Made by a program: the position numbers and the translations under genes
NCBI GenBank assembly: GCA_024638285.1
Contig: JAHEKP010000015.1
Coordinates: forward strand, 1 to 32,284
Reading direction: 5' to 3'
Source: Cryomorphaceae bacterium
GTDB taxonomy: Bacteria; Bacteroidota; Bacteroidia; Flavobacteriales; Schleiferiaceae
Length of the DNA: 32,284 bases
Notes under the pieces: model-generated
The model's database searches: none
Told to the model about the DNA's origin: nothing
Seen by the model: the letters and a program-made list of their open reading frames with translations, nothing else
Shown here: piece after piece, positions 4,304 through 16,912 of the stretch
Layout: each line of letters starts with the position of its first letter
Numbering within the stretch: position 1 is the first letter of the stretch

Positions 4304-5230
4304 TTACTTCATGAAGGACTGCTTGTTGGCCCATTCTATACTTTCTTGTAGGCACAGAACTGCTTTGTCTGCAGCACAGAAGTCTTGTTCGATATAATAG
4401 TGCTCCAGTCCAGCTATTTCTGCCATAGCAAAGACTTCTGTCCAAGGAATGACTCCTTGACCTACGGGAACCTGTGTTGCAGTATCTGCGGCGAAGTCTT
4501 TTACATGCCAAAGCGGGAATCGCCCTGGATAATTTGCCATCCATTCTACGGGATTTTGTCCGGCGAAGGCTACCCAATGAATATCCATTTCAAAGACTAC
4601 ATTGCTTCCCTCTAGTGCGTTTAATAGGTATTCATAAGCGAAGGGTGAACCCGGCTTGTTGGGCTCTAGAGGGGTGAATTCGAAATCGTGGTTGTGCCAG
4701 CCGGCGACCATGTCGCGCTTCGCTGCTGCTTCTCCTAATTGGATCAGGTATTCGATCAAATGGTCGTAGCCTTCTTTATTGCGCCATGCTTCGTTCATCC
4801 AAGGAATAACGACCCACTTTTGTCCTAGAACTTCAGCAGCATCTAAGAAGGATGCTATGGATGCGGGATCGATGCTTCCCACAATTTCACTGGCCAATTC
4901 TGGAGGCATATAATGTCCTGATGGACTTTTTAGTTCTGCATCTGCAATGGCTTTATTGAACGCTGCGGTACTCATGCCTAAAAAACCACCTTCCATGTAG
5001 CCAAAGCTCTCTACTTTTTCATAACCCATTTCGCGTGTGGTTTGCAAGGTAGCAGCGATAGAGTCAGCGCCGGTAAGTGCTTCACGCAAGGTGTATAATT
5101 GGTAGCCTTTTTCTGAGTGATTCATAAACGTTGTACTTTCTTCTAGGGTCGATGTCGCTGCATCATCTGAGTTTTGACAGGCAAAAAACGTACTAAAGAC
5201 GAAAGCCCCAAGGATTGCTGATTTCTTCAT
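4304..5230 (-). CDS. Lipoprotein sugar phosphate isomerase/epimerase-like protein (TIM barrel)
   Basis: 308 residues with a lipoprotein signal peptide (lipobox ending ...FFAC, cysteine 18) followed by a Ser/Asp/Thr-rich linker. The rest resembles the AP-endonuclease-2 / xylose-isomerase-like TIM barrel family. Visible features include YTLREAL near the first strand, GWHNHDFEF in mid-barrel, EMDIHWVAFAGQNP (metal-site region) and WHVKDFA, followed by YYIEQD. Glutamate, histidine and aspartate ligands of the divalent-metal site appear present. Bacteroidota have many such exported barrel proteins, often linked to sugar or sugar-acid conversion in the periplasm. The substrate is unknown. It is transcribed away from the S4-domain gene, and the two start codons are about 60 bases apart. 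Confidence 0.85.
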   Translation of the reverse strand: MKKSAILGAFVFSTFFACQNSDDAATSTLEESTTFMNHSEKGYQLYTLREALTGADSIAATLQTTREMGYEKVESFGYMEGGFLGMSTAAFNKAIADAELKSPSGHYMPPELASEIVGSIDPASIASFLDAAEVLGQKWVVIPWMNEAWRNKEGYDHLIEYLIQLGEAAAKRDMVAGWHNHDFEFTPLEPNKPGSPFAYEYLLNALEGSNVVFEMDIHWVAFAGQNPVEWMANYPGRFPLWHVKDFAADTATQVPVGQGVIPWTEVFAMAEIAGLEHYYIEQDFCAADKAVLCLQESIEWANKQSFMK

Positions 5231-5717: not shown

Positions 5718-5775
5718 TGTCCGGTATTTGTCCGGCACGCTTAGTTGCGTTCTTAATAATAGTATAACACTTTTG
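5718..5775 (+). promoter_or_regulatory. susC promoter with 11-bp direct-repeat operator
   Basis: Two TGTCCGG copies at 5718-5724 and 5729-5735 start exactly 11 bases apart, about one helical turn. They are followed by CACG, an AT-rich stretch (CTTAATAATAGT at 5752-5763) and CACTTTTG at 5768-5775, a one-mismatch -7 box. A GTTG at 5744-5747 is a possible -33 box (20-base spacing). Transcription would start at about 5781, leaving a leader of about 35 bases before ATG 5816. The same layout recurs at 16770-16827 at a constant offset. I infer that this is the activator site for the locus regulator (13937-16765). Confidence 0.6.
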
Positions 5776-5815
5776 GGTGTACAAAGTACATTTAAACGCT
5801 AATAGACTCAACACA

Positions 5816-13936: not shown

Positions 13937-16765
13937 ATGCAAAGAATCAAATGTCTTGTTATTCTCCTGTGGTTTGCTGTTGGTGTAAAAGCGCAGGGAA
14001 TTCGTCACATTGATGCCGTTCAAGGTTTAGGTCATCCGACCGTTTATGCGATAACATCGGATGATCTAGGCTTTGTCTGGATGGGTACACGTGATGGGCT
14101 GTACCGGTATAATGACGGTAGGGCTCAATTGGTCCCATTCCTTGAGAAAACTTCCGCACTAAGAACAACTAACGTACAGAGTCTGTGCGTTGCACAAGAT
14201 TCGATTCTATGGATCGGCTTGCAACAAGGAGGAATAGTTGCCTACAACATACACAGATTGCAGCCCATCTTGGATGCGGCCGTGCCGCAGTTGCCTTTGA
14301 GTACCACGGTCATGTCAATTTTCGAGGATTCCTACGGTACGTTATGGGCGGCGACGGCGGGAGAAGGTATTTATGCGCTTTACAAGGGCGCTTCAGGATG
14401 GGAGCGTTTGGGCTTTGACTACGCCCCCGAAGACGTTTTATTTGGTTTTGATTTCGCGCAACAAGGGGATACGCTGTGGCTAGGAACCTCCGGTTCACAC
14501 CTACTGTACTATGATTATACACTGAAGCGCATCTTATCCATTGCTTCAGGCGATGCGTATGACAGTTACCGTAAATCGGTTACCGTGGCGGGAGCGAAGG
14601 TTATTATAGGGATTGAAGATCAGGGCGTTATCCTTGTGGAACAGGGACGGATTGAACGTTTACCGGCATTACCAGTCGCTCCTTGGGTTATTAATCCTCG
14701 TGATGTGGCTGTACATGAAGATGAGATTTGGGTAAGTACAGATGGTGATGGCATGTGGGTTTGGAATGGGGAACACTGGAGACAGTTTACTAAGAACCGC
14801 GTTCAGCTTGGCATGACAACAGACCAATTGTATGCCTTCACGAAAATCAACAACGAATTTTGGGTGGGTACATTTAACGGTGGTGTTACTGTTTTTCCGC
14901 TTGAGGAGGCGCAGTCTACACCATTAGTTAAGCCCAATAGATTTATTCCGTCAGGGATCCAAAGCGCATTGAGCTTACATAATGTGGACGGCACCTTGTG
15001 GGTAGGCTTTGATGGCGACGGCGTAGTACTGTACGATCGTACTGAGGAGGGTTGGGTCCCTGAGGAAGTAGACGGTACGGTGATGCCTAAGGTAAGCCCA
15101 AGCATGTTGCTCACATCAGATTCCACTTTGTGGTTAGGGTCATTTAATGAAGGGATTTTTGTCTACGACAAGGACGGTGCATTACTGCGCAGGTTTATTG
15201 CATTTACATCCATAGCGAATGGCTTGGGCAACAATAACATTTGGTCTTTGGCTCAAGGTAAAGGAGATTCTATATGGGTAGGTACACTAGGGGGACTGTA
15301 TTTGTGGGATGGAACTGAATTCACCTTGCCCTGGCGATCGCCGTGGGAAGTGGGTAGAAACATTATGGACCTCAAGGTTTATGACGGTGTGGCCTGGGTC
15401 GCTACTGAATTTCAAGGGCTCTATCGTATTGAATCGGATTTGTCTTATACGAATTGGTCCTTAGACCATCCTATACTTGCCATAGAACAACACAACAACA
15501 CGCTTTATGTGGGAACAGAAGGCGGAGGGCTTTATAGCGTAACGACTACAGGGTTTGACACGCTCATTGCCCCATCTACTTATGTTTCGGTGTACGGTTT
15601 AACGTCATATCGTGGCGTGTTATGGATTGCTTCTAGCAATGGATTGTTGCGACTTTCAGAAGAAGGGGGTTTGTCCATACTTGCGGAGGCGAGTATGTCG
15701 GAGCTGTCCATCAGTTTGTTTAATAGAAAGTCATTGTTGCCTTGGGGCGACGATTTACTTATTGGTGGTGATCGCGGTGTAGTTTCGTATCGAATCGAAC
15801 AGAATGAAGCAGAGGACAGGGGCCAATTGGCCATAACCGGCATCTATCAGGACAATGAGATTCGGCAGAATCCTGTGTACATAGGAATCAATAATCAAGA
15901 TAATGCGTTGATCATACCTGCAGGTGTTAATTCGATTGAATTCAATTATGAATGGATCGGAAAACAAGGCATGTTGGGAGGCACTGTGTTTTATCAAGTG
16001 GATGGCATTTCTGACCAATGGCTTCAATTAAATGCACGTTCTCGTTCTCTCTCTCTGAACAACTTGCGACCAGGCAACTATAGTTTAAAATTAGAACTAC
16101 GAAACGATGCCGGTGCTGTTCTCAGCGCTCTTGAAGTGCCTTTTGTGCAAAAGGCACACCTTTGGGAGAAGCGTTGGTTTCGTGTCATTCTAGTGGTCTT
16201 AAGTTTTGTAATTGTAGGTGGGTCTATTACGGTCTATCAAGAGCGTAAATTAAAAGAGACTAGGTTGCAACTGCTTGAAACAGAAAAAGCATTACTCTCT
16301 GCGAAAGCGGGTGAAATGGAGGCCAAGGCCAAGGAAAAAACGGATGAATTGAACTTCCAATTGCTCAAAACATCTTCTCGAGTTGAGCTATTGAAAGAGT
16401 TTAAAGACAAGCTAGATAACGAAAGTAAAATGCCCAACCGTTCTACAGAAACGAAAACTTTGTTGCGCGGATTGATCAGAGAACTGAACCGTGAGTTACA
16501 AAGTGAGAGCTATTGGGACCATTTTGAGCGTAATTATAAGGACCTGCACGATGCGTTTTCGGATACGTTAGCTTCTGTTCATCCGGGTCTTACGAAAGGA
16601 GAGATACGATTGAGTTATCTCATACGCCAAAAGATGAATAATAAAGAAATAGCTACGGTTCTAAACGTAAGTCCAGCCGCTGTCGAAAAGGCCAAATACC
16701 GTCTTAAAAAGAAGATTACCTTAGATAAAGATGAGTCGTTAGATGCTTATATTCAGCAACTTTAG
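13937..16765 (+). CDS. One-component transmembrane regulator: beta-propeller, Y_Y_Y, TM helix, LuxR-type HTH
   Basis: 942 residues. A signal peptide (MQRIKCLVILLWFAVGVKAQ) is followed by many Reg_prop-type propeller repeats over about residues 25-620 (for example LGFVWMGTRDGLYRYNDG, DSILWIGLQQGGIVAYN, GTLWAATAGEGIYAL). A Y_Y_Y-like beta-sandwich lies at about 665-740 (FNYEWIGKQG ... VFYQVDGISDQWLQL ... LRPGNYSLKLELRN). One membrane helix spans about 748-768. A Lys/Glu-rich coiled coil runs at about 770-850, and a C-terminal LuxR-like HTH lies at about 882-930 (LTKGEIRLSYLIRQKMNNKEIATVLNVSPAAVEKAKYRLK). There is no histidine kinase, receiver or AraC domain, so this is not a classic hybrid two-component system. 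The sensor should face the periplasm, bind a glucan fragment, and act directly on DNA through the cytoplasmic HTH. It lies immediately downstream of the glucan operon and is its likely regulator (inference from position). Confidence 0.93.
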   Translation: MQRIKCLVILLWFAVGVKAQGIRHIDAVQGLGHPTVYAITSDDLGFVWMGTRDGLYRYNDGRAQLVPFLEKTSALRTTNVQSLCVAQDSILWIGLQQGGIVAYNIHRLQPILDAAVPQLPLSTTVMSIFEDSYGTLWAATAGEGIYALYKGASGWERLGFDYAPEDVLFGFDFAQQGDTLWLGTSGSHLLYYDYTLKRILSIASGDAYDSYRKSVTVAGAKVIIGIEDQGVILVEQGRIERLPALPVAPWVINPRDVAVHEDEIWVSTDGDGMWVWNGEHWRQFTKNRVQLGMTTDQLYAFTKINNEFWVGTFNGGVTVFPLEEAQSTPLVKPNRFIPSGIQSALSLHNVDGTLWVGFDGDGVVLYDRTEEGWVPEEVDGTVMPKVSPSMLLTSDSTLWLGSFNEGIFVYDKDGALLRRFIAFTSIANGLGNNNIWSLAQGKGDSIWVGTLGGLYLWDGTEFTLPWRSPWEVGRNIMDLKVYDGVAWVATEFQGLYRIESDLSYTNWSLDHPILAIEQHNNTLYVGTEGGGLYSVTTTGFDTLIAPSTYVSVYGLTSYRGVLWIASSNGLLRLSEEGGLSILAEASMSELSISLFNRKSLLPWGDDLLIGGDRGVVSYRIEQNEAEDRGQLAITGIYQDNEIRQNPVYIGINNQDNALIIPAGVNSIEFNYEWIGKQGMLGGTVFYQVDGISDQWLQLNARSRSLSLNNLRPGNYSLKLELRNDAGAVLSALEVPFVQKAHLWEKRWFRVILVVLSFVIVGGSITVYQERKLKETRLQLLETEKALLSAKAGEMEAKAKEKTDELNFQLLKTSSRVELLKEFKDKLDNESKMPNRSTETKTLLRGLIRELNRELQSESYWDHFERNYKDLHDAFSDTLASVHPGLTKGEIRLSYLIRQKMNNKEIATVLNVSPAAVEKAKYRLKKKITLDKDESLDAYIQQL

Positions 16766-16769
16766 ATTT

Positions 16770-16827
16770 TGTCCTAAGTTTGTCCGGTACGGGACACCTG
16801 TTACTAAATAAAATTTAGTGACTTTCG
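16770..16827 (+). promoter_or_regulatory. Second copy of the susC-type promoter/operator, after the regulator gene
   Basis: TGTCC at 16770 and TGTCCGG at 16781 repeat the 11-base spacing seen upstream of susC. A further inverted half-site GGACA at 16792-16796 continues the 11-base phasing. CTAAATAA lies at 16804-16811 and ACTTTCG at 16821-16827. Each element falls exactly 11052 bases from its counterpart at 5718-5775 with no gap; by hand count about 33 of 58 positions agree, and the matches are clustered in the boxes. There is no gene downstream on this strand before the terminator at 16875-16908. Confidence 0.5.
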
Positions 16828-16831
16828 TTCT

Positions 16832-16908
16832 TGAGTTAACGAGGGAGTCCACGATTAGTAGATTTCTATTTTTTAAAAACCAGCGTTTCGTGCAACGCTG
16901 GTTTTTTT
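16832..16908 (+). ncRNA. Candidate small RNA co-regulated with susC
   Basis: If the promoter-like element at 16770-16827 is active, transcription would start near 16832 and stop at the intrinsic terminator, giving an RNA of about 75 bases with a strong 3' hairpin and U-tract, the usual form of a bacterial small RNA. No open frame of note lies in it. The start is a guess from the -7 box. The alternative is that this is only the 3' untranslated region of the regulator mRNA. Confidence 0.35.
16875..16908. terminator. Bidirectional intrinsic terminator between regulator and M61 peptidase
   Basis: Stem ACCAGCGTT (16879-16887), loop TCGTGC, AACGCTGGT (16894-16902). It is flanked by AAAAA on the left and a run of seven T on the right, so it can serve both converging genes. 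Confidence 0.9.
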
Positions 16909-16912
16909 ATGC

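What the first reader, a model, noticed from the sequence alone, without database searches (positions are those of the whole stretch)
16770..16827. The susC promoter layout recurs, without a gene, right after the regulator
Operator repeats, AT-rich spacer and -7-like box at 5718-5775 all recur at 16770-16827 at a constant offset of 11052 bases with no gap. The repeat starts 5 bases after the regulator stop codon and has a third, inverted half-site in the same 11-base phase. Sequence similarity stops at the -7 box, so this is not simply a duplicated operon end. It points to a second promoter under the same regulator.
Basis: seen in the sequence. Interest (0 to 1): 0.68.

Follow-up and report, generated by a model that had tools for sequence, protein, structure and literature searches.

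The report
Laminarin regulator's promoter for small RNA
Right after the gene for a marine bacterium's algal-sugar sensor lies a second copy of that sensor's DNA switch, and instead of a protein it appears to turn on a short conserved RNA together with the sugar-uptake genes.

Summary
The repeat is real. Window 5718-5775 and 16770-16827 share 33 of 58 bases without a gap, the best match in the window; the similarity is mainly the TGTCC-N6-TGTCC pair. In the window's genus, 20 of 23 genomes with the regulator carry this operator 0-6 nt after the stop codon of the regulator or of a GH5 gene behind it. A genome-wide scan for a stricter motif puts 40 of 45 hits at these two places. The element is therefore a conserved second promoter, and "without a gene" needs correcting. 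In 13 of 23 genomes the operator is followed, always 62-63 nt on, by a conserved block of about 36 nt and an intrinsic terminator: a predicted 73-78-nt small RNA, at 16833-16909 in the window. In seven genomes the operator instead drives a GH5 glycosidase directly. The RNA has no Rfam match, no conserved reading frame and one copy per locus. Reading: one laminarin-type sensor-regulator co-induces the susCD operon and a small RNA. Transcription, regulator binding and RNA targets are inferred. A start-codon duplex with the divergent neighbour gene is strong in some sister species, but unsupported in the window's own species.

The parts
13937..16765 (+). Regulator: beta-propeller (Reg_prop), Y_Y_Y domain, C-terminal helix-turn-helix; SusR-like/LuxR-like layout
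   Evidence: Pfam (Reg_prop 1.1e-17; Y_Y_Y below its cut-off); HTH by eye from the sequence and near-invariant across the genus
5718..5733 (+). susC-promoter operator TGTCC-N6-TGTCC (first site)
   Evidence: TGTCC-N6-TGTCC in 17 of 17 genomes (window included) whose susC upstream was read
5768..5775 (+). -7-like box of the susC promoter (CACTTTTG)
   Evidence: spacing
16770..16785 (+). Second operator TGTCC-N6-TGTCC, 4 bases after the regulator stop
   Evidence: conserved position in 20 of 23 genomes
16792..16796 (+). Third, inverted half-site GGACA; only in the window genome and its nearest relative in this phase
16820..16827 (+). -7-like box of the second promoter (GACTTTCG, weak)
   Evidence: relatives have CACATTTG / CACCTTTG / CATCTTTG
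16833..16909 (+). Predicted small RNA: conserved 5' block, hairpin, linker, intrinsic terminator
   Evidence: RNA model R1 hit 79.6 bits; leave-out profile E 3.5e-4 at 16833-16867
16843..16867 (+). 5' hairpin of the RNA (about 9 pairs, bulge), retained through one-sided changes
   Evidence: folds; pair counts
16878..16908 (+). Intrinsic terminator: 10-pair stem plus T run; 4 of 10 pairs covary in relatives
   Evidence: the simple scan did not list it

Best explanation
The element is a second promoter of the PUL's own sensor-regulator. When the regulator senses its glycan (laminarin, judged from the gene content) it binds the TGTCC direct repeat both upstream of susC and just behind its own gene, in the same geometry to the -7 box, and recruits RNA polymerase. 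At the second site transcription starts at about 16832-16833 and ends at the terminator at about 16908, giving a small non-coding RNA of about 77 nt that is made together with the SusCD/GH16 operon and acts as its post-transcriptional arm. In related lineages the same promoter drives the RNA plus downstream genes, or a GH5 glycosidase directly. Shown by comparison: conserved operator, geometry, RNA block and terminator. Inferred: regulator binding, induction, transcript, trans action.
For: Operator 0-6 nt after the stop of the regulator (18 genomes) or of the GH5 gene behind it (2) in 20 of 23 genomes with the regulator. Operator-to-RNA distance 62 nt in 12 loci and 63 in 2. In F. psychrophilum the sigma-A -7 box spans -12 to -5 (PMC9723704, passages), so the RNA block starts at the predicted +1 or +2. 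Model R1 gives 7 hits of 75-101 bits in 25 genomes, one per genome, all at this place, next best 33.6 bits; R2 gives 7 loci in 6 genomes. A profile made without the window finds 16833-16867 first, E 3.5e-4, next 1.4. Against G005, G008 and G019 the block is 75-78% identical while the operator-to-box spacer is 40-51% and the regulator about 50%. In G006/G023 the PUL core was replaced by a distant allele (regulator 45% identical to G005, flanking genes up308/M61/rhodopsin 89-97%), yet operator and RNA stayed (block 36 of 36), now behind an added GH5 gene. The recognition helix is near-invariant. Other exact motif hits in the window's genome precede a second GH16 and a GH149 beta-1,3-glucan phosphorylase followed by a GH17 gene.
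Against: No transcript or binding data. The window's -7 box (TTTCG) and that of G017 (TTTAG) are the weakest of the set, just where no downstream gene remains. In 11 of 13 RNA-bearing genomes a colinear gene starts about 21-56 nt after the terminator, so a leader role is not excluded. The two RNA types (A in 7 genomes, B in 6) are barely alignable beyond the first ten bases, and type A is not a clade on the regulator tree. Three of 23 genomes have no operator. No credible target was found for the window's RNA. The simple terminator scan listed nothing.
Confidence: 0.72

Rival explanations
1. Attenuator leader: the RNA is the 5' leader of a downstream operon (GH5 and/or a lipocalin-like gene), its terminator a conditional attenuator; the window keeps a remnant after losing the gene.
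For: In 11 of 13 RNA-bearing genomes a colinear gene starts about 21-56 nt behind the terminator, which leaves little room for another promoter. The window and G017, which lack such a gene, have the weakest -7 boxes.
Against: The genes behind it differ (GH5, lipocalin-like, none). The 5' block is 35 of 37 identical between the two genomes without a downstream gene. The conserved block has no counterpart able to pair with the changing terminator arms (CCAGCGTT vs CCGGCGCC), so no conserved antiterminator is visible.
Confidence: 0.17
2. Relic promoter: ancestral promoter of the GH5 gene, now orphaned and decaying in the window, with no functional product.
For: In seven genomes the operator sits directly before GH5 (G011 and G021 with a degenerate operator); the window has no GH5 at this place; weak -7 box.
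Against: Operator 16 of 16 and RNA block 35 of 37 identical to G017 while the spacer is 24 of 33; RNA block and terminator pairing retained.
Confidence: 0.08
3. Processed 3' UTR of the regulator mRNA: the block is mainly a stabilising 3' end or processed small RNA of the regulator transcript, and the operator only tunes the locus.
For: The regulator mRNA would read into the same terminator; the block directly follows the gene in 11 of 13 RNA-bearing genomes.
Against: In G006 and G023 the unit lies 2.7 kb away behind GH5 with the operator still at 62 nt; the fixed operator-to-RNA spacing points to initiation, not processing.
Confidence: 0.1
4. Short open reading frame or leader peptide.
For: Type B begins GTG and stays open for about 10 codons in several genomes.
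Against: One-base indels within the block (G017 vs G000; G020 vs its sisters) break every frame; no ribosome site if transcription starts at the block.
Confidence: 0.03

Closest known systems
DonS and other PUL-associated antisense RNAs of Bacteroides (as described in PMC7366714 and PMC10994844, passages read)
   Same: Small RNA (78-128 nt for the DonS family) tied to a susC-type operon of Bacteroidota
   Different: Those are encoded divergently, antisense to susC, and repress it; this one is encoded behind the regulator on the same strand and has the PUL's own operator
FopS / GibS small RNAs of B. thetaiotaomicron (PMC11697453 passages, PMC7366714 passages)
   Same: Short RNA with a conserved 5' end and a Rho-independent terminator; FopS pair near start codons of PUL mRNAs
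   Different: FopS are 14 paralogues from canonical sigma-A promoters, not under a PUL-specific regulator; here one copy per locus; no Rfam match
SusR-like regulons of Bacteroides (PMC3878776, section read)
   Same: Membrane sensor-regulator activating susC operons through a direct repeat
   Different: Published SusR repeats are 67 or 77 bp centre to centre, HTCS about 21 bp; here 11 bp
Rfp18 of Flavobacterium psychrophilum (PMC9723704, passages read)
   Same: Conserved small RNA in the same phylum
   Different: Needed for expression of proteases; no link to a PUL regulator described in the passages read

Membership tests
Bacteroidota sigma-A promoter | -7 box TAnnTTTG | tested here: inconclusive
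   Relatives CACATTTG, CACCTTTG, CATCTTTG (5 of 6 fixed bases); window GACTTTCG, 4 of 6
Regulon of the PUL regulator | Shared operator in fixed geometry upstream of both units | tested here: met
   Same repeat, 57-58 bases from first T to end of -7 box at both sites; 20 of 23 genomes
Regulon of the PUL regulator | Regulator binds the site and activates | not testable with these tools
   needs EMSA/ChIP and expression data
Small regulatory RNA (independent transcript) | Own promoter, terminator, conservation, no reading frame | tested here: met
   sequence features only; transcript itself not seen
Small regulatory RNA (independent transcript) | Base-pairs with target mRNAs | tested here: inconclusive
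   Strong start-codon duplex with the divergent neighbour in G005, G006, G023; same complement seen in G019; weak in G008 (p 0.085); window p 0.035 uncorrected and unspecific
FopS / GibS family | Sequence family (R1 seed; in Rfam per PMC11697453) | tested here: not met
   No Rfam match at gathering score in window, L042, L043, L050
DonS-type PUL antisense RNA | Divergent, antisense to susC | tested here: not met
   Lies 11 kb from the susC promoter, same strand, behind the regulator
SusR-like regulator | Periplasmic sensor plus C-terminal HTH | tested here: inconclusive
   Reg_prop, weak Y_Y_Y, C-terminal HTH by eye; not compared with SusR itself
SusR-like operator | Direct repeat 67/77 bp apart | tested here: not met
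   11 bp here (PMC3878776 section 7)
Transcription attenuator leader | Mutually exclusive antiterminator hairpin | tested here: not met
   Conserved block cannot pair with the varying terminator arms (alignment, by eye)

The most novel reading that the evidence does not exclude
A small RNA hard-wired into a polysaccharide-utilization regulon: the PUL's own sensor-regulator drives it from a second copy of the susC operator directly behind its gene, so substrate sensing induces uptake machinery and a post-transcriptional regulator together, and the operator-RNA unit stays in place while the PUL core next to it is swapped between species.
Probability: 0.45. Interest if true: 0.7.

Novelty: new variant of a known kind. 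Interest (0 to 1): 0.52.

Why it matters
Laminarin is a major algal polysaccharide (general knowledge) and PULs are how marine Bacteroidota consume it. PUL small RNAs are described in gut Bacteroides as antisense or globally driven RNAs. A small RNA that shares the PUL's own operator would link substrate sensing directly to post-transcriptional control, and it gives a defined 11-bp direct-repeat operator for a regulator class whose sites are little known. It also yields sharp tests: one probe, one induction, one deletion.

Tried and rejected
Chance repeat: the bare motif in one genome is not beyond chance; rejected on positional conservation. Duplicated operon end: rejected, similarity ends at the -7 box. 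Known RNA family: no Rfam match at gathering score; the sub-threshold hits (L10_leader, Leu_leader, RNAI, STnc370) lie far below their gathering scores. Third inverted half-site as a conserved operator part: rejected.

RNA targets: a duplex scan of start regions in 12 RNA-bearing loci (G019 and G009b left out as too short) put the divergent gene up308 first or second in the six type-A genomes scanned. Controls support it only for the G005-type RNA against G005, G006 and G023 (p below 1/400) and against G008's leader (p 0.005); G008's own RNA gives p 0.085; the window's RNA gives p 0.035 uncorrected and pairs better with the unrelated G007 leader. A 12-mer seed-complement search found 72 hits in five genomes and 102 in two, at about control level or a little above. 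I fetched and read 17 of these places; the recurrent exact match lies at the stop codon of a conserved frame, so I dropped it. I did not read the other hits. No whole-genome target prediction was made. Search for the type-A RNA outside the genus: 0 of 63 other genomes of the family at E <= 1e-5.

A better-registered alignment of the 5' hairpin (window shifted by one column) was made by eye only; the counts use the uncorrected alignment.

Full report
WHAT WAS CLAIMED.

OBSERVATION. Confirmed. The two 58-base stretches are identical at 33 positions with no gap, the best match in the window apart from itself (next 29; mean 14.8, sd 3.3), and similarity falls to 4 of 20 right after the -7 box. Most of it is the operator: 17 of 22 in the first 22 bases, 16 of 36 in the rest. 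TGTCC-N6-TGTCC occurs four times exactly in the 1.71-Mb assembly and its reversed control three times, so the motif alone proves little. The window's -7 box is weak (GACTTTCG).

SETTING. The window is contig 13 of a draft genome of a genus that includes Schleiferiaceae MAGs. The genes are susC, susD, an unassigned gene, a GH16 laminarinase-type gene, a CBM48-like secreted protein, then a regulator with a beta-propeller, a weak Y_Y_Y match and a C-terminal helix-turn-helix (HTH by eye); behind it, on the other strand, an M61 peptidase and a rhodopsin. "Laminarin" is inferred from GH16 here and from GH149 (NCBIfam, 1734 bits), GH17 and a second GH16 behind other exact motif hits elsewhere in the genome.

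CONSERVATION OF THE SECOND OPERATOR. Of 25 genomes of the genus, 23 hold the regulator; the susC contigs fetched for the other two (G015, G016) are read only about 5-9 kb downstream of the susC operator, short of where the regulator would lie. The operator lies 1-6 nt after the regulator stop in 18 genomes and 0-3 nt after the stop of an added GH5 gene in two more (G006, G023): 20 of 23, with G011 and G021 carrying a degenerate TGTCT form; G003, G012 and G013 have none. A scan for TGTCCRGN4TGTCY in all 25 genomes gave 45 hits: 23 at susC promoters, 17 behind the regulator or GH5, 5 elsewhere; the reversed control gave 9 (I assigned the hits by hand from the listing and the fetched loci). The window's own second site (TGTCCTA) does not fit that stricter pattern. 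One of the five others, in G013, has the same geometry before a secreted-protein gene.

WHAT THE PROMOTER DRIVES. Three outcomes occur. In seven genomes GH5+CBM6 (domains from one of them) starts shortly behind the operator. In thirteen genomes a conserved block follows at 62 nt (12 loci) or 63 nt (2 loci) from the operator, then an intrinsic terminator. In three there is no operator. The block comes in two types. Type A: G000, G017, G005, G008, G019, G006, G023. Type B: G004, G007, G009 (two copies), G018, G020, G022. They share little beyond the first ten bases, G[A/T]GTTA[A/C]CGA with changes in G004. F. psychrophilum's sigma-A box spans -12 to -5 (PMC9723704, passages); by that rule the block begins at +1 or +2.

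WHY AN RNA. Model R1 (type A) gives 7 hits of 74.6-101.3 bits in 25 genomes, one per genome, all here; the next is 33.6 bits, and none of the 63 non-genus genomes of the family matches at E <= 1e-5. Those seven are the sequences the model was built from, so I also made a profile of the 36-nt block from G005, G008 and G019 only: it finds 16833-16867 first in the window (E 3.5e-4; next 1.4) and the orthologous place in G017. Against those three genomes the window's block is 75-78% identical, the operator-to-box spacer 40-51%. Four of ten terminator pairs change on both sides and all cells pair; the 5' hairpin varies only on single sides, with two unpaired cells in the alignment used. One-base indels break any reading frame. 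Rfam gives no match.

A NATURAL SWAP. G005 and G006 are close in the flanks (up308 89%, M61 96%, rhodopsin 97%, lipocalin-like 81%) but distant in the PUL core (susC 75%, regulator 45%): the core was replaced. Operator and RNA stayed (16 of 16 and 36 of 36), now behind a GH5 gene. The recognition helix is almost invariant across the genus, which may be why the swap is tolerated. The regulator tree accordingly splits type A.

MECHANISM. Most likely the glycan-bound regulator activates both promoters, giving SusCD/GH16 and a short RNA at once. Shown: conserved sites, geometry, RNA, terminator. Inferred: binding, induction, transcript, action in trans. Target: in G005, G006 and G023 the RNA's 5' end forms a long duplex over the start codon of the divergent TIM-barrel gene (-27 kcal/mol; p below 1/400 against shuffles), and G019 has the same complement; it is weak in G008 and not convincing in the window or G017. 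The main rival is an attenuator leader, because 11 of 13 RNA-bearing genomes have a colinear gene about 21-56 nt behind the terminator; the unrelated genes behind it, the conservation in genomes with no such gene and the lack of an antiterminator partner speak against it.

KNOWN KINDS. It resembles PUL-linked small RNAs of Bacteroides: DonS-type antisense RNAs (PMC7366714, PMC10994844) and FopS/GibS (PMC11697453, PMC7366714), passages read. It fails the defining features tested for both: not antisense to susC, and no Rfam match. The operator is a direct repeat as in SusR and HTCS regulons, but 11 bp apart instead of 67/77 or about 21 (PMC3878776, section 7 and passages). Searches of the held library for PUL small RNAs and laminarin listed no paper whose title or abstract start describes a small RNA under a PUL's own regulator in marine Bacteroidota; I read passages of five papers only.

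Noticed in passing
G000:C71:322-348 (L060) and G017:C26 (L160): Three TGTC[C/T] half-sites in 11-bp phase upstream of a GH149 beta-1,3-glucan phosphorylase gene followed by a GH17 gene, overlapping a 12-base inverted repeat; no clear -7 box at the usual spacing.
   Followed up: partly
G000:C63:163-178 (L059): Same operator with near-correct spacing to a -7-like box upstream of a second GH16 gene: likely a further regulon member.
   Followed up: partly
window 5777-5800 and susC leaders of relatives: Near the predicted susC transcription start most relatives carry an inverted repeat (AGTGTAC..GTACACT), a possible 5' hairpin of the susC mRNA.
   Followed up: no
L041 and L054 (G006, G023) versus L040 (G005): Allele replacement of the whole PUL core (susC to regulator) between sister species, with the flanks unchanged.
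   Followed up: partly
window 4304-5230 (-): Divergent gene for a xylose-isomerase-like TIM-barrel protein; in G005, G006, G019 and G023 its start codon region is complementary to the RNA's 5' end.
   Followed up: partly
G007, G009, G018, G020, G022 susC upstream: An extra TGTCC half-site 56 bases upstream of the susC operator in these type-B genomes.
   Followed up: no
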